From Bacteroidota bacterium (GTDB taxonomy: Bacteria > Bacteroidota > Ignavibacteria > UBA10030), in NCBI GenBank assembly GCA_026416125.1, contig JAOAFT010000016.1, positions 1 through 48,818 on the forward strand: a DNA stretch of 48,818 nt, written 5' to 3'. Made by a program: the position numbers and the translations under genes. The notes under the pieces are model-generated. The model did not search any database. It saw only the letters and a list, made by a program, of their open reading frames with translations, and was not told where the DNA came from. Below are positions 37,934-48,818 of the stretch, piece by piece. Numbering within the stretch: position 1 is the stretch's first letter; every line of letters begins with the position of its first letter.

Positions 37934-39199
37934 TTACCCAATAACTTCAAATTTGGTGTAAGGATGTAACACTTTTGGAATGATAACTTTCCCTTCTGGA
38001 GTTTGATAGAATTCAAGTAAAGCAGCCACAACACGTGGAAGAGCAAGACCTGAACCGTTTAACGTATGAACAAATTCAGGTTTTCCGCCATGGGCAGGAC
38101 GGAAACGTACGTTCATACGACGAGCCTGGAAAGCTTCAAAGTTACTGCATGATGATACTTCTAGCCACCGTTGTTGAGCGGGGGACCATACTTCAAGATC
38201 GTATTTTTTTGTTTGTGTAAAACCTAAGTCACCTGTACACATTAGTAAACGGCGATAGGGGAGCCCTAAAAGTTGGAGAAGTTCTTCGGCATCTTGTCGA
38301 AGAAATTCTAATTCATCATACGAGGTTGAAGGATGTACAAATTTTACAAGTTCTACTTTATCGAACTGGTGAAGTCTGTTTAAACCGCGTACGTCTTTAC
38401 CATACGATCCCGCTTCACGTCGAAAACAAGGTGTATACGCAGCATACCGGAGTGGTAAATCGCTTTCTTGGAGAATTTCGTCACGATGTATATTTGTGAC
38501 GGGTACTTCGGCTGTCGGGATGAGGTACAATTGATCTCGTTCAACAACATACATTAAGTCTTCTTTATCTGGTAGTTGCCCTGTACCGCGTGCACTGTCT
38601 GCATTGACAACAATTGGTGGCATTACCTCTTTATAGTGATGCTCCCGTGCCTTGTCAAGGAAGAAATTTATGAGAGCTCGTTCGAGTTGAGCACCTTTCC
38701 CAATGAGGAATGGAAAACCAGCACCGGTGACTTTTGCACCCCGGCCAAAGTCAATGATTCCGAGTTTATCTGCAAGTTCCCAATGCGGTTTCAGGTGGAA
38801 ATCGAAATCAGGTATGTCACCCCATTGGTAAACAACTTTGTTGTCGTCGGGAGATGTACCAAATGGTACTGAATTGTGTGGAATGTTTGGGATAGTGAGT
38901 AAAAGTTCTTCGATTGATCGTTCGATGTCTTTAAGCTCAGTATCTATTTGTTGGATACGCTCTTTTATGGTTTCCATACTCGCAATTAAATCTGTTACGG
39001 TGTCACCACTCCGTTTGCGTTTTCCGATTTCGTTTGAAACTTGATTTCGTTTAGCTTTTAAGGTATCACCTTCTTGAATGAGCTGTTTTCGTTTATCATC
39101 GAGTTTCAGTAAGGTAGTGAGATCGATGGAGATTCCTTTAGCTCTTGCACCAGCTTGTACTAGTTCAGGATTTTCTCGGATAAATTTAATATCTAACAT
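37934..39199 (-). CDS. serS: Seryl-tRNA synthetase
   Basis: Class II aminoacyl-tRNA synthetase charging tRNA-Ser. The 421-aa length is typical. Seen: an N-terminal coiled-coil tRNA-binding arm (about 25-100), motif 2 around FRREAGSYGKDVRGLNRLHQF (quoted in part: CFRREAGSYGKD) and motif 3 GSGLALPRVVAALLE near the C-terminus. It starts with MLDIKFIRENPE, the family N-terminus. It lies 12 nt after the RmlD-like gene. Confidence 0.97.
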   Translation of the reverse strand: MLDIKFIRENPELVQAGARAKGISIDLTTLLKLDDKRKQLIQEGDTLKAKRNQVSNEIGKRKRSGDTVTDLIASMETIKERIQQIDTELKDIERSIEELLLTIPNIPHNSVPFGTSPDDNKVVYQWGDIPDFDFHLKPHWELADKLGIIDFGRGAKVTGAGFPFLIGKGAQLERALINFFLDKAREHHYKEVMPPIVVNADSARGTGQLPDKEDLMYVVERDQLYLIPTAEVPVTNIHRDEILQESDLPLRYAAYTPCFRREAGSYGKDVRGLNRLHQFDKVELVKFVHPSTSYDELEFLRQDAEELLQLLGLPYRRLLMCTGDLGFTQTKKYDLEVWSPAQQRWLEVSSCSNFEAFQARRMNVRFRPAHGGKPEFVHTLNGSGLALPRVVAALLEFYQTPEGKVIIPKVLHPYTKFEVIG

Positions 39200-39211: not shown

Positions 39212-40123
39212 TTAATTTTTTTGACAATCTTCTAGTTCTTGTTTTAGTTTCAATAAACCTTCTCGTGCAGTATGAAAGCGTATCCCTAATTCACGTTCTG
39301 CTTTTTCAACAATGAGGCCGCTCTTCATGGGGCGTGGGGCTGTTTGCTGAAGTTCAGAGCTTTTTATACGTTGTATAAGTGAGGGGTCAAATCCAAAAAC
39401 TTCAGCAATTTGTACTGCAAAGTCATACCGGGAAAGAATATCGCGCCCTGCAACGTTGTATACACCAACTTTGTCAAGCTCGAAGAGTTTGATCATAGCG
39501 ATTGCTAGATCACCTACATACGTTGCATTTCCTTGTTGATCATCAACAACTCTAATACGATTCCCTTGCCTTAAATTTTGGAGTACCCACAGTGCAAAGT
39601 TCGGTTTAACATTGATGCCATAACCAAATAGTACCATAGTTCGAACAATAGCGTAGTTGATGTTTGCACTTAGTACAACATTCTCGCTTGCCAGTTTTGA
39701 TTTGCCATAATAACCAAGAGGATTAGGTTGTGCTGTTTCGGTGTACGGACCAGCTTTTCCATCGAAGATATAATCTGTCGAGACGTGAATAAGTTTAGCA
39801 TTAACACGTCGAGCTGCTTCGGCAAGGTTTTCAACAGCAACAACATTGAGTTTCCATGTTTCTTCTCGATGTGTTTCACACCAATCAACATTCGTTGCTG
39901 CAGCGGCATTGAAAATAACAGTAGGTTGAAAACTGGATATGAGACTTTTTACGTCACTGCGTGATGTAATGTCAAGCTGAGTGTAGTCAAAGAGTTTATC
40001 ATCGAAAACAAAGGTTCGTTCAATTGAAGTGTTTAACACTTCATACTCAGTTCTGGTACTCAGGAGGAGCGATAAGCGTTGACCGAGGAGACCATTACTT
40101 CCGCAAATAAGAATTCGTTTCAT
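39212..40123 (-). CDS. rfbD: RmlD-like dTDP-4-dehydrorhamnose reductase / SDR reductase
   Basis: A 303-aa extended short-chain dehydrogenase of the RmlD (dTDP-4-keto-L-rhamnose reductase) family, last step of dTDP-rhamnose synthesis. Seen: nucleotide-binding GSNGLLGQ (8-15), FNAAAATNVDWCE, VSTDYIFDGKAGPY and the YYGKSK catalytic Tyr-Lys pair, then FGYG and VVDDQQGNATYVGDLA. No other rhamnose gene (rmlABC) is near, and it overlaps dapD by 4 nt (ATGA) in a lysine cluster, so its true substrate may be another keto-sugar nucleotide or S-adenosylmethionine-related (MAT2B-type) partner. Family certain, exact reaction tentative. Confidence 0.82.
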   Translation of the reverse strand: MKRILICGSNGLLGQRLSLLLSTRTEYEVLNTSIERTFVFDDKLFDYTQLDITSRSDVKSLISSFQPTVIFNAAAATNVDWCETHREETWKLNVVAVENLAEAARRVNAKLIHVSTDYIFDGKAGPYTETAQPNPLGYYGKSKLASENVVLSANINYAIVRTMVLFGYGINVKPNFALWVLQNLRQGNRIRVVDDQQGNATYVGDLAIAMIKLFELDKVGVYNVAGRDILSRYDFAVQIAEVFGFDPSLIQRIKSSELQQTAPRPMKSGLIVEKAERELGIRFHTAREGLLKLKQELEDCQKN

Positions 40124-40953
40124 TGGAGTGCAGTAATTAATGCAGTTTCAGCACTTAGGGTTTCTGGTCGGTATTGAACGATGAGAGGAGTGTATATACC
40201 AATACCATGTGTACGGGCAAAATCATTGGTCATTGTACGGGTGCCAGGAACCACAACAGCACCCTCTGGTACAATAAGTGGTTGTGAATCGTTCTTACAA
40301 TAGATAGTACTATTAACAAGGTCAACGAGCTGTGTCGTATGGGTAAGGTGTACTCCTTGTGCGAGTACTGCTCTCCGTTGAACTATAACACCATCACCAA
40401 TACTGCACATGCCTTGAATATACACATCATCTTCGACAATTGCGGGTGGAATAGTCAACTCTGTTAGTGTGCTGGTAATGTATGTCCCTGTTCCAATGTG
40501 TACACGTTTACCAATTTGTACACATGGTCCTAGAAATGAGTGAGTGTCGATGGATGTATACTCATCAACGAACGCACCGATAGTAATAGTTGTTGGGGAA
40601 AGAATCGTCACGTGTGGACCTAGATAAACACCATCGTGGATATACGTTCCACCAGGGGACAATCGGACTCTATGTTCAAGGGTTATTTTTTTCGGTGTAT
40701 AGGTGTTTTTATCGAAGAAACGAAATTGTTCGTTGAGTGAAACATCGACAAGATCGCCTACATTAAAACCAAGGAGAATACCCTTCTTTACCCACTGATG
40801 GTACGTCCAAGTATTTTGATGAGGACTTGCTGCACGAATCTCGCCATAGTTTAAGAAAAATTTTAACTCATTGAATGCTTGCAGGGCTGCTTGTTTATCA
40901 ATGGAAGCTTTATCTTGTTCATACAACTTTTCAATTTTTTCTCGAAGGAGCAT
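40120..40953 (-). CDS. dapD: Tetrahydrodipicolinate N-succinyltransferase, divergent (DapD-like)
   Basis: A 277-aa left-handed beta-helix acyltransferase (E. coli DapD 274). In DAP/lysine synthesis DapD succinylates tetrahydrodipicolinate. Seen: hexapeptide repeats about 95-215 (TITIGAFVDEYTSIDTHSF, CVQIGKRVHIGTGTYI, IVEDDVYIQGMCSIGDGVIV), with IGAFVDE and CVQIGKRVHI matching DapD. The E. coli DTWATVGSCAQIG core is DTHSFLGPCVQIG here, and the SGGVGIGGVLEP loop reads GTGTYITSTLTE, so the substrate loop differs. Position between dapA and the SDR gene supports the lysine role. AAGGG lies 7 nt before the ATG. Confidence 0.8.
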   Translation of the reverse strand: MLLREKIEKLYEQDKASIDKQAALQAFNELKFFLNYGEIRAASPHQNTWTYHQWVKKGILLGFNVGDLVDVSLNEQFRFFDKNTYTPKKITLEHRVRLSPGGTYIHDGVYLGPHVTILSPTTITIGAFVDEYTSIDTHSFLGPCVQIGKRVHIGTGTYITSTLTELTIPPAIVEDDVYIQGMCSIGDGVIVQRRAVLAQGVHLTHTTQLVDLVNSTIYCKNDSQPLIVPEGAVVVPGTRTMTNDFARTHGIGIYTPLIVQYRPETLSAETALITALQ

Positions 40954-40956
40954 ATA

Positions 40957-41856
40957 CTACCCTTTAATAAGTTTTAAGCTCATGAGTACCTGCCTCACTT
41001 TTTCCCGATTTTTTTCAGAAATCGGGCAAAGTGGTAGTCGATATGATTCTTCGATTAGTCCCATCATTGCTAAAGCTGTTTTAACGGGGATAGGATTTGA
41101 CTCAATGAAATTTACATTCATGAGTGGAAGAAGTTTATAATGAAGCTCACGTGCTTTATCCCATTTTCCTTTGAGACAGAAATTGATAAGCTGAGAAAAC
41201 TCTTTTGGTACTTCATTAGCAACAACTGAGATACAACCATCACCTCCAAGAGCAATGAGTGGAAATGCATAGGCATCATCACCGGAGAGAAGAGAAAAGT
41301 GCTGTGGTTTATTTCGTGCGATTTCCATAATTTGCTGGAGATTACCAGAAGCTTCTTTTACAGCTACAATGGATGGGATTTCTTCAGCCAAGCGGAGGAT
41401 TGTTGAAGCTTCGATGTTACCTCCTGTGCGACCTGGTACGTTGTAGACGATAATTGGTATATCAACAGCTTCAGCAATGGCTCTGAAGTGGCGATAGTAT
41501 CCTTCTTGTGTTGGTTTGTTGTAATAGGGACCCACGACGAGTGCAGCATCCGCACCAACAGCTTTAGCAATACGTGCTTTCTCGATTGCTTCGGCAGTAC
41601 TATTGCTTCCTGCGCCGGCAAAAATTTTCACGCGGCCTCGTGCTTGTTCTATAACGATTTCAAGTACTCGTTCATGTTCTTCTTTTGTTACCGTGGGGTT
41701 TTCTCCTGTTGTGCCAAGAGGGACGAGAGCATCAACTCCACCTTTAATTTGGTACTCAATGAACTTTCGTAAAGCCGGTTCATCAAGAGAACCATCTTTC
41801 TTAAAAGGGGTTACAATTGCTGTTGCCGTACCTTGGAACTTTTTTGGTGGTCGCAT
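40957..41856 (-). CDS. dapA: 4-hydroxy-tetrahydrodipicolinate synthase
   Basis: Condenses pyruvate with aspartate semialdehyde, the committed step of DAP/lysine synthesis. From the ATG at 41856 it is 299 aa, typical of DapA. Seen: TAIVTPF, GTTGENPT (about 44-51), YNVPGRTGG (about 135-143) with the catalytic Tyr, and the Schiff-base Lys in VAVKEASGN (about 164). The ATG at 41874 overlaps the dapB stop (TAATG), but AGGAGG sits between it and the 41856 ATG with 9-nt spacing, so 41856 is the likely start. Both starts are in frame. Confidence 0.95.
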   Translation of the reverse strand: MRPPKKFQGTATAIVTPFKKDGSLDEPALRKFIEYQIKGGVDALVPLGTTGENPTVTKEEHERVLEIVIEQARGRVKIFAGAGSNSTAEAIEKARIAKAVGADAALVVGPYYNKPTQEGYYRHFRAIAEAVDIPIIVYNVPGRTGGNIEASTILRLAEEIPSIVAVKEASGNLQQIMEIARNKPQHFSLLSGDDAYAFPLIALGGDGCISVVANEVPKEFSQLINFCLKGKWDKARELHYKLLPLMNVNFIESNPIPVKTALAMMGLIEESYRLPLCPISEKNREKVRQVLMSLKLIKG

Positions 41857-41873
41857 GTGTATGTACCTCCTCA

Positions 41874-42602
41874 TTAGAATAATTCGTTCATAATATCTTC
41901 GAACGTGAAAAGACCTTTTTTATCTTTTATCCATTCAGCTGCAAGTAACGCACCAAGTGCAAATCCTGAGCGATTCTTTGCAGCATGCATAATTTCGATA
42001 GTATCAGCGAAAGAATCAAATGTAACAATATGGGTACCGATGACGGTACCACCCCGGGTTGATGTTATGTGGAGTTGATGGGGATGAATTTTCCCATGGG
42101 ACGTTTCTGTTAGGAGTTCTTTCTTTCGTTCTATTGTATTGAGGAGTAGTTTCCCTATAGAAAGTGCTGTACCACTGGGACTGTCAGCTTTATCTTTATG
42201 GTGATACTCGTGGATAAAAACATCGTACTCATGAAAGCGATTTATGAGTGTTCCAGCTGTACGGAGTATTGCATAGAAGAGATTTACTCCTAGTGAGAAA
42301 TTTGCTGCATACACAATACCTATGTTGTACTGTTGTTGAATTGATTGAACATCAGAAAGGGAGTTGTACCAACCCGTTGTTCCAATGACAAGAGGTTTTT
42401 GCAGGTTACCCCAATATTTCAAATCATCAAGCATCCCATTTGCGGATGCAAAGTGGATAACAGCATCTGCTTGTGCACATTGTTCGGGTGTACATGGTGG
42501 CTGAGTGAGATCAATACGTGCACAAATAGACCATCCACGTTCAAGAGCTAACCGCTCAACTTCTTTTCCCATTTTTCCATATCCATGGAGAGCAAGCTTC
42601 AT
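41874..42602 (-). CDS. dapB: 4-hydroxy-tetrahydrodipicolinate reductase
   Basis: NAD(P)H-dependent second step of the DAP pathway. From the ATG at 42602 it is 242 aa. Seen: Rossmann GYGKMGKEV near the N-terminus, GTTGW, AANFSLGVNLF, and the catalytic EYHHKDKADSPSGTA with His and Lys. GGGAG lies 6 nt before ATG 42602; the in-frame ATG at 42617 would hold that Shine-Dalgarno inside the gene. It begins 20 nt after lysC. Confidence 0.95.
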   Translation of the reverse strand: MKLALHGYGKMGKEVERLALERGWSICARIDLTQPPCTPEQCAQADAVIHFASANGMLDDLKYWGNLQKPLVIGTTGWYNSLSDVQSIQQQYNIGIVYAANFSLGVNLFYAILRTAGTLINRFHEYDVFIHEYHHKDKADSPSGTALSIGKLLLNTIERKKELLTETSHGKIHPHQLHITSTRGGTVIGTHIVTFDSFADTIEIMHAAKNRSGFALGALLAAEWIKDKKGLFTFEDIMNELF

Positions 42603-42622
42603 AGGAATCTCCCTCATATTTG

Positions 42623-43978
42623 TTATTGGCCAAAAAATTCAGCATGCAATCGTTGTACAGCCTCTTCAACGTCGGTTTCATCTATAACCATACTCATGTT
42701 TATTTCGGATGCACCTTGGGAAATCATAATAATGTTAATGTTCTTAAGTGCATTGAAAACACGATGGGCAATCCCTTCTGTTGAACGTATTCGTTCACCG
42801 ATAACGCTAACGATTGCTTTGTCTGTAAGTACATTGACTTCAGCTGCTTCTTCTAATTCTACAACAATCTGGTCGAGATGGGTTGTCGTATCAATTGTGA
42901 GTGAAACTGCTACTTCAGAAGTACTCACAAGATCAACAGGAGTTTTGTACTTACTGAAAATTGAGAAAATCATTTCAAGGAATCCATATGCCATGAGCAT
43001 CCGCGTGGAAATCACGTTAATAACAGTAATTCCTTTCTTCGATGCAATTGCTTTGACAGCGAGAGTACTCGGTGGAGGATTGGAAATAATGCGGGTTCCA
43101 GTATTTTCAGGGTTCTTTGAATTTAGGACAATTACAGGAATATTTTTTTGGATTGCTGGAAGAATTGTACTAGGATGGAGAACCTTTGCTCCAAAGTAAG
43201 CAAGCTCTGAGGCTTCGTTGAAAGATATTACGTCGAGCTTCCGCGCATTGGGTACGATTCGTGGGTCGGCTGTTAGAACACCATCAACATCTGTCCATAT
43301 TTGAATTTCTTTTGCACCAAGTGCCGCTCCAAGAATGGATGCTGTATAGTCTGAACCACCACGACCAAGTGTTGTTGTAATACCTTTCGGTGTTACACCT
43401 ACAAATCCTTGTGTTATTGGAATCTTTCCAGCTTGTATAAGGGGTAAAAATATTTCGGTCGCTTTTGCGTTGATAAGGTCGAAGAGAGGATGTGCCGCTG
43501 TGAAATGATCATCAGTGATCATGAAAGTTCTTGCATCCACAAGTTCGACAGGAATGCCACGTTGTTCCATCGCTTCTGCGAGGATTAATGTTGAAAGACG
43601 TTCACCTATCGATGCAATTGCGTCAAGTGAACGAGGTGTAAGTTCGCCGAGTAATGCGATACCATGACATATATTTTTTAATTCTTCAAAACGGCGTTTG
43701 AAACTCAAGATAAGTTGTTGAATTGTCGGTCGATCGTCGATGAGGTTTTCAGCTATAGTGACATGGCGTTCGAGCAATTGGTTCAATCGAGCATGGGCTT
43801 CATCAAGCTGCCCCTCTAAAGACATCGATGCAGCTTTCAGGAGTGTGTTTGTTGCTCCGGCAATTGCCGAGAGTACGACAATCGGATGCTGGGATTGTGC
43901 TTTCAGAATGATATTAATAACATTATTCATGGCACGTGCATCTTCAACAGAAGTGCCACCAAACTTCATGACAATCAT
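42623..43978 (-). CDS. lysC: Aspartate kinase (LysC/AK-III type)
   Basis: Phosphorylates aspartate, the entry step for lysine, threonine and methionine. The 451-aa length fits E. coli LysC (449). Seen: KFGGTSVEDA (about 5-14), GRGGSDYTA in the kinase domain, FYEASELAYFGAKVLHPST-like FNEASELAYFGAKVLHP, and two C-terminal ACT domains (about 310-450: VINVISTRML, VSVIGERIRST) that usually bind lysine as feedback inhibitor. It overlaps the kinase gene upstream by 4 nt (ATGA). Confidence 0.95.
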   Translation of the reverse strand: MIVMKFGGTSVEDARAMNNVINIILKAQSQHPIVVLSAIAGATNTLLKAASMSLEGQLDEAHARLNQLLERHVTIAENLIDDRPTIQQLILSFKRRFEELKNICHGIALLGELTPRSLDAIASIGERLSTLILAEAMEQRGIPVELVDARTFMITDDHFTAAHPLFDLINAKATEIFLPLIQAGKIPITQGFVGVTPKGITTTLGRGGSDYTASILGAALGAKEIQIWTDVDGVLTADPRIVPNARKLDVISFNEASELAYFGAKVLHPSTILPAIQKNIPVIVLNSKNPENTGTRIISNPPPSTLAVKAIASKKGITVINVISTRMLMAYGFLEMIFSIFSKYKTPVDLVSTSEVAVSLTIDTTTHLDQIVVELEEAAEVNVLTDKAIVSVIGERIRSTEGIAHRVFNALKNINIIMISQGASEINMSMVIDETDVEEAVQRLHAEFFGQ

Positions 43979-44931
43979 ACGTATGCTACCTTCAGTTCTT
44001 GTTTAAGCGTTGTTATTTGTTCTCGTAATGTATCAAAATCTTCTGCAGATGCAAGTGTAGTGTTCAATGATGCTATAGCATTTGCAAACTCCGCAGCAGT
44101 AAAGGAATTTCGTGTCTTTAAGTATGCGTAGAGATATGCAGCTCCGAACACATCGCCACAGCCAGTCGGGTTAATGAATCGATTGTCAGTCGGAATTCCA
44201 GGAATATCTCTCCGTGATAGTTTCTTATGAATGTCTTGTGAAATTACGGAGACGCCCTTTTCACCTCGTGTGATGAGGAGAGTGTTCACCATGAGAGGCA
44301 TAAGATGGTTGATAAGAGTTGTTTCATCAAATTTTTCAGCCGTGAGACCAGCAGCTTCTTCTTCACTCATTTGTATGGAATGGAGCATGAAGCACCATCG
44401 GCGCCAATCTGTAAGCGGTCGACGAAAACGTACATGGTTGTGATCGATACCAAGGGTAAGAGAGTGAAAGTCAAAGTGAATAGGAATGCGTTGGTCACGT
44501 GTTTCTATTCGAATTGCATCGAGTGTTTCAAGTGTAATATCGAACCCTGAAACCATGTTGATAAGAATACCATCACAATCGAGGTACGGTTTAATCCGTT
44601 GGAAGGGTATTGGTGCTGCAATGTCGCGAGAACATTCGGTACGCGATTGCTTGTCATTGTGGTATGAGAGGTATACTGTATTCGTAATTCCTTTGAATTT
44701 GAATATACCACGTGTTTCAATATTTTTATATCGTGATAAGAGATTCATGAGTCGATCGTAGTCACCATTGCCAACACCAAAAACGGGGTAAAGAATATCG
44801 CTCTCATCAATGAGGGTAGCAAGTGCTGCTATTGTGTAGAATATTCCTCCAAACTGTTCACGAGACTTTTCATGGGGTGATTGAGGTGGGAGAATATCGT
44901 TGCAGATATGTCCAATAACAGTAATTACCAT
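43975..44931 (-). CDS. PfkB-family carbohydrate/nucleoside kinase
   Basis: A 318-aa ribokinase-like kinase, likely phosphorylating a sugar or sugar-like molecule. Seen: N-terminal VIGHICNDI and the C-terminal PfkB signature NPTGCGDVFGAAYLY (about 268-282), with the catalytic Asp in GCGD; the usual form is DTxGAGD. VNTLLITRGEKGVSV matches the family ATP-site strand. Substrate unknown. It starts 2 nt after the HisA-like gene and overlaps lysC by 4 nt, so it is tied to both in one operon. Confidence 0.85.
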   Translation of the reverse strand: MVITVIGHICNDILPPQSPHEKSREQFGGIFYTIAALATLIDESDILYPVFGVGNGDYDRLMNLLSRYKNIETRGIFKFKGITNTVYLSYHNDKQSRTECSRDIAAPIPFQRIKPYLDCDGILINMVSGFDITLETLDAIRIETRDQRIPIHFDFHSLTLGIDHNHVRFRRPLTDWRRWCFMLHSIQMSEEEAAGLTAEKFDETTLINHLMPLMVNTLLITRGEKGVSVISQDIHKKLSRRDIPGIPTDNRFINPTGCGDVFGAAYLYAYLKTRNSFTAAEFANAIASLNTTLASAEDFDTLREQITTLKQELKVAYV

Positions 44932-44933
44932 TG

Positions 44934-45698
44934 TTATAATCTTCGAGTGGGACCAAGATCGGTAAGTTGCGCCTCGTTAATTCGCCAAAGTGTTTGGCAA
45001 GGGAAACAATTTTCGTAGAGAGGCTTTCCTAAAATAATTGAGTCAACCCCATACTTTTCGAGTGTTTGGAGTCGAACAAGATCCTGGTAATTCCAAACAC
45101 CGCCACGTACAGTTACTCGTACACCAGTTTTGGTAACAAGTTCTTTGAGCATATCATAGGGGAGTGTTTTCCCAATGATACCTTCTTCGCGTTCACCATA
45201 CACAATGCGAGAAACACCAAGGTTTGCCATCTGAATTGCAAGTTCTATCGGAGAAATCTCAGCAGTTGTTGTACCACCTTTAATGATAACTTTTCCTGAC
45301 TCCGAAACAATACCTACTGCAATTTTCCGTGTGCCAAATTCTTTCACAAAGTCTTCTATAATTTTAGGATTTTCAACAGCGGCGGTATTGAGAATAATTC
45401 TGTACACACCTAAACTTAGTACTTTTTGAATTTCTTCGTACGTCCGAAGTCCACCAGAAACCTGTATTGGTATATCGACTGCATCGACCATCTGCTTGAT
45501 AATTTCATAGTTAACAATGCGACCTTCAGCTGCACCATCCTTATCAATTACGTGTATTGTTTTCGCATTTTCACCTCGCCAAAGGATGGCCATTTGTACC
45601 GGATCAACAGAGTATCGATGTTCCATACCCGGTGCTCCGTGTACAAACTCAACACATCGATGTTTGCTTATTTCAATGAGTGGGTAAATTAGAATCAT
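44934..45698 (-). CDS. HisA/HisF-superfamily beta/alpha-barrel protein lacking HisA catalytic residues
   Basis: A 254-aa (beta/alpha)8 protein of the HisA family, from the ATG at 45698. Matches to HisA include the second strand region TIHVIDKDGAAEG (E. coli HLVDLTGAKDP), QVSGGLRT and ILNTAAVENP. The HisA catalytic aspartate of PALDL is Glu here (PLIEI), the second catalytic Asp of ALDVR is Val (GIVSE), and the TDISRDGTL loop is YGEREEGII. So phosphate-binding glycines remain, but the isomerase residues do not. It is thus probably not a histidine enzyme. It heads the cluster with a PfkB kinase and lysC. An in-frame TTG at 45737 lies in a terminator-like hairpin and is rejected. Confidence 0.8.
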   Translation of the reverse strand: MILIYPLIEISKHRCVEFVHGAPGMEHRYSVDPVQMAILWRGENAKTIHVIDKDGAAEGRIVNYEIIKQMVDAVDIPIQVSGGLRTYEEIQKVLSLGVYRIILNTAAVENPKIIEDFVKEFGTRKIAVGIVSESGKVIIKGGTTTAEISPIELAIQMANLGVSRIVYGEREEGIIGKTLPYDMLKELVTKTGVRVTVRGGVWNYQDLVRLQTLEKYGVDSIILGKPLYENCFPCQTLWRINEAQLTDLGPTRRL

Positions 45699-45861: not shown

Positions 45862-46653
45862 TTAATTTTGCACTGATTGAAGCATGTTGAGAAGAAGCCG
45901 TTGCCCGACAACATTTGCAGCTTCTCGGTTGTTTTGAAGCTCTTTGAATGCAGCTGTTTGGCCTTCGCTATCGTGAATGGGAGGTTGAGAAAGAGCAGCC
46001 CTAATACATGCAAACATGTCGAGTGCACAGAGGATTATTCTTCCACGTCCAGTTGGAATGATGCTTAATGCTGAGTAAACTTCTCTTTTATGGTCTGCTA
46101 CGCAACCTACAATAGTTTCACCGTTATGTACTCTCAAACCGATACGATTCCGTTCGTACGTAGCAAAACATTGATACTCCCAGTTAAACACACACGCCTG
46201 AGGCAAACCTCTAAAGAGTGTGTGGTGCTTTACAAAGTAGTTCCCACCATACCATGTTTTCCCAAGGACTTGGTACCCTCGGTAGTCCAGAATTTCTTTC
46301 TGAGCTAAGTACTCAGCCCACTTCGTAGCTGTGTTGACAATGATGAGCGTGTTTCCATTATTTACCCACTCGAGGATATCGGTAACGAGGGGTTTATCCG
46401 GGGGCGGATTAAATGCTCCAACAAGAAGCCATTTCCCGTGTGGCATACCTTTCGAGTACTCTTTAAAGTTCGTAATACCTTTCGATCGTAAAAATGATTG
46501 GAGAATACCCGATGTATCGGCAACCATTCCATCCGGAAAGTTATAAGGAATATTGAGTGAAACAGCAAATACAGTATCTGCACCTTCAGTAATGAGACGG
46601 TTCCCTGAAATGAGTGCAGCGTGGACAGCTGTGTACCCAGGATGGCGAAGTAG
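45862..46653 (-). pseudogene. C-terminal part of the glycoside hydrolase, downstream of an in-frame TAG
   Basis: Reading on in the same frame directly after TAG at 46656-46654 gives 263 codons with no stop until 45862: LLRHPGYTAVHAALISGNRL and onward. The first 40 residues look like the end of an Ig-like domain (GYTAVHAAL, ADTVFAVSL), and the rest is alpha/beta with LVTDILEWVNNGNTLIIVN, resembling the Rossmann-like trimerisation/GATase-like domains found on beta-galactosidases. An internal ATG at 46527 could start a separate 221-aa protein, but the conserved-looking stretch starts before it and it has only a poor Shine-Dalgarno. The best reading is that this was once, or still is, joined to the upstream part. 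Confidence 0.75.
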
Positions 46654-48818
46654 CTATTTATACCGTGGAAGAATGAGTTCACCATACGTTGCTCCACCTG
46701 TTATAGTAACAGAGTAATCATCTTTGGCAAGAACTCCAAGGGAATCTAACACAGTTACACGGAGGGTATAGGTCCCATTGAGATTTACCTGGTTAACGAT
46801 GTAGAAGTCAGCAATGAGTGTATCGGTGGATGCAGTGACTTTATTTGGAATTTTTATTGCAATATACAATGGTTGGAGATAGTACGAAAGTAACCGTGGA
46901 TTTCCTTTAAAGTTGCGATAGTTATCTACAATCCCTGAATGATTCTCAAGCATCATACTTTCCCAACCATTAATTGCATAGCCATCCGCAATGTTGTTAA
47001 TGCGAATGTTTTCAATGGCTCTTCCTTGGTAGTAGTATGCAACGTTTCCCATCGCGCAGGTAAGCTCATCTACGTTTCTAAAGGCGGAGGTGAAACCATG
47101 TTTTTTCAAGAATGTATCATACGCTTCATACCATTCGAGGTATGCAGCTGTTTCCCAACCGCGTTGTTTCCCTGTTTTTTGTATTTCATTGTAGATAAGT
47201 TGAAGACGTGGCGGAGTACCAATAGCTCCTTCCTCTCCCCAGTAAATAATTTCATCTGTTTTGTTTGTGTAGCGAATGTACTGGTTAGGGTTAACGTATA
47301 CCCCATTGTGGTAAACACCTGGCCCACCTGCGTGATGTTGGTCGAACCAGCCATAGTCATAGAAATTTGAATCGTAAGGGAGCATGTGAAGTTTGAACTG
47401 AGGGTCAGGCCCCATTTTTATTTCACCGTTACATGAGTTGTATGTAAGAATACGAGTTTCATCAAGTTTATGGGCATCAGCCATATCTATGCTGTCTTGA
47501 AAACTTGGCAGTGCCGCTCGTTCGTTGTGGAGGTTATAGATGATAAGCGATGGATGATTCCGATCACGCTTAATCATTCTGAATAGTTTCTCACGACGAC
47601 ATGGGATGTAAAAATTTCGCTGTTTTTGTTCCAAAGTATTCTTTGGAGTGAAAAGTTCGTAAGGGTATTGGTACCCACCCGGTTCCTCAAAATAAAGTAG
47701 ACCAAGTTCGTCAGCGTAATCGAGAACATTACTTGAACCAATTGTTCGATGGAAATTCAACATATTCAAACCAAGTTCTTTCGCAGCTTTTATTTGTTTT
47801 TTAGCCATTTCATCGGTAGGTGCTATACCGTTTAGAGGCCAGAACCCCCACGATATAGCTGTGAAAAGGACGATTCGTTTTCCATTCAAGTAGAACTGTT
47901 TATCACCGTTTATAGTTCGAACTTCAAACCATCGGAATCCAAACCGTTGTGAATAGAGATCTTTTGTTGAAGAGCCATTCCATTGGACGTTAAGGACATA
48001 AAGATGTGGTGATTCCGGACTCCATAATTTTGCTTGTTCTAGTTTAAGAGTATGTGTTATAAGAGTCTGTGTATCGAACGGTGGTACTTGGAGTGTCGTT
48101 GTAAGTAATGGTTTTGAGTTTTTTGAACCCCACTCAAACAGTGAGAAGGTGAGCATCCCAGGTTCGGAGGGAATACCACTATTTTTGAGAGTTACAACAA
48201 CATCGACCTCGTGTACTTTTGGTTTATTTTTAATAAATACATCATCGATGAAAATGGGGTCTGTTGCAATGAGTTTTACTTTTCCTGTAATACCACCGAA
48301 GCCATGTGATGGAATAGTACGGTACTCACCCCATTGGAACGTTCGAGAATCACGCCAATCAAAGTTACCATTAGGATCTGTTATTCGTACGGCAAGATGG
48401 TTCAGCTTACCAAATGTGACAGCGTCTGTTATGTCAACATCGAATGGAGTGCTGTTTACTATGTCGTAACCGACAAGTTTCTTGTTAACGAAAACTTCTG
48501 CTCTGAACCGTACGCTTTCAAAGTGAAGTACAATTCGTTTTCCCTTTAAAGATGATGGTACGGGAAAGATTGTTGAGAACCACGAAACGCCTAGGTAATT
48601 CCCAGTAACACCAAAGGTACTTCCCTGTGTTCCCCAGAAATATTCTTCTACAGTTGCAGGAAGATGTGTTCTAACAAACTTTTTGGCATTCTCGAGCATT
48701 TCCCACCCTCCTGTTGGAATGTTTACCGGTAACGTTGAAATATTTACTGGAGGGAGGTAAAGGGAGTCATTTTGCCACTGAGCAGATTCATCGAGTACGA
48801 TTTTCCAACTATTTGTGC
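46654..48818 (-). CDS. Glycoside hydrolase family 2 enzyme (5' end outside the window, ends at in-frame TAG)
   Basis: Beta-glycosidase of the GH2 (beta-galactosidase/glucuronidase) clan, likely acting on plant or algal polysaccharide. The frame stays open to the right edge (WKIVLDESAQW before the first visible Met), so the ATG at 48699 is internal despite AGGAGG before it. Counting from 48699: jelly-roll sugar-binding domain (about 20-180), Ig-like domain (about 190-270), then a TIM barrel with acid/base Glu in YNLHNERA (about 391) and the likely nucleophile Glu in YWGEEGAIG (about 488). Another Ig-like domain leads to ILPRYK and TAG, where the same frame continues. Substrate cannot be assigned from sequence. 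Confidence 0.85.
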   Translation of the reverse strand, partial: TNSWKIVLDESAQWQNDSLYLPPVNISTLPVNIPTGGWEMLENAKKFVRTHLPATVEEYFWGTQGSTFGVTGNYLGVSWFSTIFPVPSSLKGKRIVLHFESVRFRAEVFVNKKLVGYDIVNSTPFDVDITDAVTFGKLNHLAVRITDPNGNFDWRDSRTFQWGEYRTIPSHGFGGITGKVKLIATDPIFIDDVFIKNKPKVHEVDVVVTLKNSGIPSEPGMLTFSLFEWGSKNSKPLLTTTLQVPPFDTQTLITHTLKLEQAKLWSPESPHLYVLNVQWNGSSTKDLYSQRFGFRWFEVRTINGDKQFYLNGKRIVLFTAISWGFWPLNGIAPTDEMAKKQIKAAKELGLNMLNFHRTIGSSNVLDYADELGLLYFEEPGGYQYPYELFTPKNTLEQKQRNFYIPCRREKLFRMIKRDRNHPSLIIYNLHNERAALPSFQDSIDMADAHKLDETRILTYNSCNGEIKMGPDPQFKLHMLPYDSNFYDYGWFDQHHAGGPGVYHNGVYVNPNQYIRYTNKTDEIIYWGEEGAIGTPPRLQLIYNEIQKTGKQRGWETAAYLEWYEAYDTFLKKHGFTSAFRNVDELTCAMGNVAYYYQGRAIENIRINNIADGYAINGWESMMLENHSGIVDNYRNFKGNPRLLSYYLQPLYIAIKIPNKVTASTDTLIADFYIVNQVNLNGTYTLRVTVLDSLGVLAKDDYSVTITGGATYGELILPRYK

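What the first reader, a model, noticed from the sequence alone, without database searches (positions are those of the whole stretch)
44934..45698. HisA-fold protein without HisA catalytic residues heads a lysine/DAP cluster
Phosphate-binding glycines and barrel strands are kept, but the two catalytic Asp positions read Glu and Val and the TDISRDGTL loop is changed. It sits 2 nt from a PfkB kinase that overlaps lysC. This suggests a repurposed barrel working with a kinase on a phosphorylated sugar-like or amino-sugar compound, an uncharacterised pathway next to aspartate metabolism.
Basis: partly seen in the sequence, partly recalled or inferred. Interest (0 to 1): 0.6.

Follow-up and report, generated by a model that had tools for sequence, protein, structure and literature searches.

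The report
Displaced HisA barrel kept beside kinase
This gene descends from the old histidine-pathway enzyme HisA of green-sulfur-bacteria relatives; an unrelated histidine operon now does that job, the old enzyme's active site has decayed, and yet the protein is still strictly conserved beside a sugar- or nucleoside-type kinase, so it probably has a second, non-catalytic role.

Summary
Window 44934-45698 (-) encodes a 254-aa HisA-fold protein (Pfam His_biosynth 175 bits; AlphaFold pLDDT 90) that scores below the HisA equivalog cut-off. It has Glu for Asp8, Val for Asp127, Gly for Trp138 and a changed TDISRDG loop. The genome has a complete, separate hisGDC(NB)HAF(IE) operon with an intact HisA (only 30% identical) and its own trpF. 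The protein is not a new family: it is the vertically inherited HisA of the Chlorobi/Rhodothermia/Ignavibacteria line. In sister family f5 it still sits in hisH-hisA-hisF-hisI-pfkB with all catalytic residues. Across 47 his-operon members the catalytic set is intact wherever it can be read; 0 of 29 members from the window's family are intact. The family's copies stay under strong purifying selection (dN/dS 0.04-0.08). In at least 17 nearly complete order-level genomes a copy persists without hisD or a second HisA. Released sites are in the active site; phosphate loops and a C-terminal tail stay conserved, and no new catalytic set is fixed. Best reading: a displaced HisA kept as a ligand-binding pseudoenzyme, probably serving the adjacent PfkB kinase. 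The lysC/dap neighbourhood is variable and not diagnostic. The partner role is inferred, not shown.

The parts
44934..45698 (-). HisAL: HisA-lineage barrel without HisA catalytic residues (254 aa), first gene of the run
43975..44931 (-). PfkB/ribokinase-fold kinase (318 aa) with catalytic-base Asp260 (GCGD) kept; starts 2 nt after HisAL
42623..43978 (-). lysC aspartate kinase, overlaps pfkB by 4 nt; a variable neighbour of the pair
41874..42617 (-). dapB; downstream gene of the same run, a variable neighbour of the HisAL-PfkB pair
40957..41874 (-). dapA; downstream gene of the same run, variable neighbour
40120..40953 (-). dapD-like transferase
39212..40123 (-). rmlD-like reductase; the most constant downstream neighbour with serS
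37934..39199 (-). serS, at the far end of the conserved neighbourhood (named from sequence; relatives found by BLAST)

Best explanation
HisAL is the old, vertically inherited HisA of this lineage, displaced from histidine synthesis by a second his operon. It lost the residues for ProFAR isomerisation but is kept by purifying selection for a non-catalytic job. Mechanism proposed: the barrel still binds a phosphoribosyl-type ligand through its retained phosphate loops and, with its conserved C-terminal tail (LTDLGPTRR), acts as a binding or regulatory partner of the PfkB kinase co-encoded 2 nt downstream. Shown by computation: origin, loss of the catalytic set, independence from histidine synthesis, purifying selection, conserved pairing with pfkB. 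Inferred: ligand binding, physical contact with PfkB, regulation.
For: Tree: the window's clade is nested in the HisA lineage, grouped with intact f5/f10 HisA (SH-aLRT 95), with at least 3 losses of the intact set. The 47 members beside hisF/hisH keep D8-D127-W138-T164-D169 at every readable position (46 full, 1 with Asp8 missing at a contig edge); 0 of 29 window-family members do. Complete his operon with true HisA (273 bits, over cut-off) and own trpF. No hisD in 22 relatives that keep HisAL, 18 of them at least 90% complete, 17 of those with no second HisA. dN/dS 0.039-0.084 in window-family pairs against 0.020-0.044 in intact HisA. Released sites are mostly active-site positions; the only newly fixed letters at catalytic positions are E9 and G142; tail L245-R253 is invariant in six diverse family members although 250-254 is predicted disordered. 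HisAL and PfkB lie within about 123 nt in all 27 window-family loci; G015 shows neither gene. Other orphan branches sit beside cyclic-nucleotide-binding and UspA proteins, a sensor-like context.
Against: No direct evidence of ligand binding or of contact with PfkB. HisAL and PfkB are on different contigs in G032 and G042, and G053 keeps HisAL without PfkB, so the pairing is not obligatory. 13 of 29 family members keep acidic letters (E8, E127, D169), so some chemistry may remain in that subclade. The tail is also conserved in intact f5 HisA, so it may be only structural.
Confidence: 0.5

Rival explanations
1. Neofunctionalised enzyme: the barrel catalyses a different reaction (for example aldose-ketose isomerisation of another phosphoribosyl compound) on the substrate or product of the PfkB kinase, using Glu9 and the retained His49/Asp52/Asp54.
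For: H49, D52, D54, R85, T105 and the phosphate loops are kept and E9 is fixed; Trp to Gly opens the pocket where the imidazole stacks; the kinase is conserved and keeps its catalytic Asp. HisA relatives have taken new substrates elsewhere (PriA/SubTrpF, AdeK: PMC5404923, PMC13055916).
Against: Positions 127, 164, 165 and 169 vary inside the family, unusual for a new active site; no newly fixed polar residue at the former catalytic positions other than E9; other orphan branches sit beside unrelated genes.
Confidence: 0.33
2. It is still a working HisA or a HisA/TrpF bifunctional enzyme, redundant with the operon copy.
For: HisA fold and profile match.
Against: All five catalytic or stacking residues lost; below the HisA (175 < 229) and HisA-TrpF (113 < 306) cut-offs; intact hisA and trpF elsewhere; orphan kept where hisD and hisF are gone.
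Confidence: 0.04
3. A decaying relict of the ancestral his operon with no function, carried because of its place at the head of an essential operon (for example translational coupling to pfkB).
For: The active site decays in several branches in different ways; the gene heads the operon and nearly touches pfkB.
Against: dN/dS 0.04-0.08, close to intact HisA; full-length open frames in nearly all species; fold core and tail conserved; the protein is better conserved than PfkB in the same genome pairs. Coupling alone would not conserve protein sequence.
Confidence: 0.05

Closest known systems
HisA (ProFAR isomerase, TIGR00007), Chlorobi/Rhodothermota type with C-terminal peptide (PMC8305728)
   Same: Direct orthologous lineage, same barrel, phosphate loops and LYENxFPCQxLW tail start; operon hisH-hisA-hisF-hisI-pfkB in sister families.
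   Different: Catalytic Asp8, Asp127, Asp169, Trp138, Thr164 lost; not in a his operon; below the equivalog cut-off.
PriA / SubHisA / SubTrpF and AdeK of Actinomycetota (PMC5404923, PMC13055916)
   Same: HisA homologues retained or recruited after loss or replacement of his/trp genes.
   Different: Those remain active isomerases, as the papers report; here the catalytic pair is gone, and selection on close pairs looks strong rather than relaxed.
PDX1.2, non-catalytic pseudoenzyme of vitamin B6 synthesis (PMC6829848)
   Same: Biosynthetic enzyme paralogue turned regulator; a model for how a dead enzyme can be kept (its barrel fold is from my own knowledge).
   Different: PDX1.2 regulates plant vitamin B6 synthesis beside its active paralogue; HisAL's proposed partner is a kinase of another fold.
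Ribokinase-family nucleoside/sugar kinases (BthNK, MJ0406, ribokinase), for the PfkB partner
   Same: Fold and C-terminal ATP/GxGD region.
   Different: 14-19% identity in structure matches, no equivalog match; invariant W-R-R-W motif; substrate unknown.

Membership tests
HisA (TIGR00007 equivalog) | Profile score at or above curated cut-off 228.95 bits | tested here: not met
   175.1 bits; the genome's operon HisA scores 273
HisA (TIGR00007 equivalog) | Catalytic Asp8 and loop-6 Asp169 (D7/D176 in Salmonella), plus Asp127 and Trp138 | tested here: not met
   E, G, V, G in the window protein
HisA (TIGR00007 equivalog) | (beta/alpha)8 barrel with two phosphate-binding loops | tested here: met
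   AlphaFold2 pLDDT 90, TM about 0.8 to PriA/HisA; G82/G83, R85, G199/G200 kept
HisA (TIGR00007 equivalog) | Evolutionary descent from HisA | tested here: met
   Nested in the HisA lineage tree
HisA (TIGR00007 equivalog) | ProFAR isomerase activity | not testable with these tools
   Needs enzyme assay or complementation
PriA / HisA-TrpF bifunctional isomerase | TIGR01919 cut-off 306 bits; genome without trpF | tested here: not met
   112.6 bits; trpF present on G000:C77
HisF / WbuZ / AglZ-HisF2 | TIGR00735 (294.6), TIGR03572 (299.7), NF038364 (310) cut-offs | tested here: not met
   74, 87 and 86 bits
TIGR00734 hisAF_rel | Cut-off 179.85 bits | tested here: not met
   21.7 bits
PfkB carbohydrate kinase family (partner gene) | PF00294 gathering score and catalytic Asp in GxGD | tested here: met
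   45.6 over 25.8 bits; G259-D260 invariant in 35 aligned relatives
PfkB carbohydrate kinase family (partner gene) | Assignment to a substrate-specific subfamily | tested here: inconclusive
   No NCBIfam equivalog near its cut-off

The most novel reading that the evidence does not exclude
The ancestral HisA of the Chlorobi/Ignavibacteria line already had a second, non-catalytic function (a binding or sensing role that needs its fold, phosphate loops and lineage-specific tail). When histidine synthesis was lost or taken over by an imported operon, that function kept the protein alive as an orphan in several branches, each pairing it with a different partner (PfkB kinase; cyclic-nucleotide-binding plus UspA; urocanase).
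Probability: 0.25. Interest if true: 0.72.

Novelty: new variant of a known kind. Interest (0 to 1): 0.5.

Why it matters
A 2021 survey of his genes in this superphylum noticed that two Ignavibacteria probably have imported his operons and lack the long-tailed HisA of their relatives (PMC8305728); the sections read here do not mention what became of the original. This work indicates that in this class it is still there, outside the his genes, with an eroded active site under strong selection. It gives a natural series (intact HisA in an operon, partly altered orphan, fully altered orphan) in which to ask what a core enzyme does besides catalysis. It also warns annotation pipelines: orphans in genomes without hisD look like HisA and would wrongly suggest a histidine pathway.

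Tried and rejected
TrpF replacement (PriA-like): rejected, the genome and 50 of 61 genomes searched have PF00697 trpF. A dedicated second PurE working with HisAL in f3/f6: rejected, it is the only normal PurE of those genomes. A lysine-linked function: lysC and dapBA are absent between pfkB and rmlD in 10 of 27 family loci and in f5. Pseudogene: rejected by dN/dS. Test of correlated evolution between his neighbours and the intact set: only 3 independent pairs on well-supported branches, not enough for significance, so the 47-against-29 contrast is phylogenetically clustered. Literature search for a HisA pseudoenzyme found nothing in the held library. Plasmid search gave HisA-type matches of no more than about 34% identity in the rows shown. 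Class-level counts of HisA-type barrels without hisD (34 of 76 at E <= 1e-45) mix intact and orphan types, and HisF can ring at weaker E-values, so they are not used as main evidence.

Full report
OBSERVATION. The gene at 44934-45698 (-) encodes 254 aa. It matches Pfam His_biosynth over its whole length (174.7 bits) but falls short of every HisA equivalog cut-off (TIGR00007 175.1 against 228.95). AlphaFold2 gives a confident barrel (pLDDT 90.2), nearest to PriA/HisA crystal structures. Relative to T. maritima HisA it has E at Asp8, V at Asp127, G at Trp138, G at Thr164 and G at Asp169. The Salmonella enzyme was crystallised with its substrate using D7N and D176A changes at what I take to be the first and last of these (titles), and the Trp stacks on ProFAR (PMC9088769). 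The pfkB gene begins 2 nt downstream and overlaps lysC by 4 nt.

THE GENOME HAS ANOTHER HISA. Two further strong His_biosynth genes lie together on contig C76 inside a complete hisG-D-C-(NB)-H-A-F-(IE) operon, whose HisA scores 273 bits and is about 30% identical to the window protein. A trpF is also present. So by gene content the window protein is not needed for histidine or tryptophan synthesis.

ORIGIN. Relatives were taken from 61 order-level genomes, 296 phylum-level genomes and a named genome collection (Ignavibacteria, Chlorobiaceae, Rhodothermia). The protein belongs to one lineage shared by all of these. In family f5 and f10 members it is hisA of hisH-hisA-hisF-hisI followed by pfkB, with every catalytic residue intact and (f5) no other hisA found in the genome. 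In Chlorobiaceae and Rhodothermia it is likewise intact, usually beside hisH and often hisF. The tree, built without the catalytic columns, nests the window's clade with the intact f5/f10 HisA and needs at least three losses of the intact state (quick tree, some forks open). The second HisA copies sampled from genomes of f1, f3, f6, f7, f9, f13, f14 and f15 are all intact and fall outside this lineage. This agrees with a published survey that inferred horizontal transfer of whole his operons into Ignavibacterium album and Melioribacter roseus, and that described the C-terminal peptide of Chlorobi/Rhodothermota HisA which the copies in those two species lack (PMC8305728). In the sections read, that paper does not mention a retained original copy.

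WHAT WAS LOST AND WHAT WAS KEPT. All 47 members next to hisF/hisH read D-D-W-T-D at the five key positions wherever readable (one lacks the first because it is cut at a contig edge); 0 of 29 members of the window's group do (that group counts one f1 genome from two sources). Sites conserved in intact HisA but free or changed in the window's family include Tm 8, 16, 125, 127, 128, 138, 164-166, 169, 174 and 194: mainly the active site. Kept are phosphate-loop glycines, R85, H49, D52, D54 and T105. Only E9 and G142 are newly fixed at former catalytic positions. In six diverse family members residues L245 to R253 are nearly all invariant, although 250-254 is modelled with pLDDT under 50. Pairwise dN/dS of close family pairs is 0.039, 0.043, 0.056 and 0.084, against 0.020-0.044 for intact HisA pairs. 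The protein is not a pseudogene.

INDEPENDENCE FROM HISTIDINE. hisD is absent from 23 of 61 relatives; 22 of these keep the orphan, 18 of them at least 90% complete, and in 17 no second HisA was found. These counts rest on draft genomes, so single absences may be gaps; the pattern over whole families (f2, f4) is not.

THE PARTNER. A PfkB-fold kinase (AlphaFold2 pLDDT 91.5) lies within about 123 nt downstream in all 27 window-family loci of the named collection, and after purE in several f3/f6 genomes. It keeps the catalytic Asp and has an invariant WRRW motif. Its closest solved relatives by profile are ribokinase and the nucleoside kinases BthNK and MJ0406, by fold ribokinases; no substrate can be named. 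The next genes vary: lysC follows in 17 of the 27 loci (with dapB-dapA where the contig reaches), otherwise dapD or rmlD follow directly; rmlD, and serS where the locus reaches far enough, are the constant neighbours. The lysine genes are therefore poor evidence for function. Exceptions to the pairing: G032 and G042 have the two genes on different contigs; G053 has HisAL and no close kinase; G015 shows neither.

OTHER ORPHAN BRANCHES. Members from f7/f14-type genomes (D8, D127 kept; Trp to Arg; Asp169 to Asn) sit directly beside a cyclic-nucleotide-binding protein and a UspA protein in 7 of 7 loci, four of these with an IF-2B-family protein as well. f18-type members (Thr164 to Gln, Asp169 to Val) sit beside urocanase in 6 of 9 loci, most of them close relatives. 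These contexts are regulatory or unrelated to HisA chemistry and favour a binding role.

MECHANISM. Most likely: displaced HisA kept as a ligand-binding pseudoenzyme serving PfkB. The first half (displaced, ProFAR activity lost, selected) I hold at about 0.9 from the computations above; the second half (binding partner or regulator of PfkB) is inference, giving about 0.5 for the whole statement. A new enzymatic function is the main rival (0.33): in 13 of 29 members acids remain at three of the positions, though in the window's own subclade they do not.

LIMITS. No biochemical test, no complex prediction, a quick tree, draft genomes without names for the G handles, and too few independent contrasts for a formal correlation test.

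Noticed in passing
L089, L090, L091, L158, L178, L185, L206 (f7/f14-type genomes): Orphan HisA with Trp138 to Arg and Asp169 to Asn directly beside a cyclic-nucleotide-binding protein and a UspA protein in 7 of 7 loci, in four also an IF-2B (eIF2B/ribose-1,5-bisphosphate isomerase/MtnA-type) protein: a conserved module of unknown function.
   Followed up: partly
L088:6304-8804 and L171, L175, L176, L181, L183: Orphan HisA with a shared altered loop (Q at Thr164, V at Asp169) near urocanase (hutU) in 6 of 9 loci; the sampled f18 genome G317 lacks hisD.
   Followed up: partly
L087 (G305) and L131-L147: Apparent ancestral order hisH-hisA-hisF-hisI-(purE)-pfkB-rmlD-serS, with hisB-proC upstream in G305: the pfkB gene was once the neighbour of his and purE genes.
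   Followed up: partly
window 45862-48816 (-): Glycoside-hydrolase family 2-like frame (open at the window edge) ends at 46654, and a second frame without any family match follows at 45862-46527; possibly a frameshifted or split C-terminus.
   Followed up: no
window 40120-40953 (-): dapD-like protein scores just under an NCBIfam DapD cut-off (194.9 against 204), a divergent acyltransferase.
   Followed up: no
G000 whole genome: No IF-2B-family (MtnA-type) gene found, although 26 of the 31 genomes searched have one; may be an assembly gap or loss of methylthioribose salvage.
   Followed up: no
L154 and L182 (G053-type, 1.7 Mb genome): Most divergent HisA-lineage proteins of the set (long branch, Trp138 region deleted), in loci without PfkB: erosion is strongest where the kinase is gone.
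   Followed up: partly
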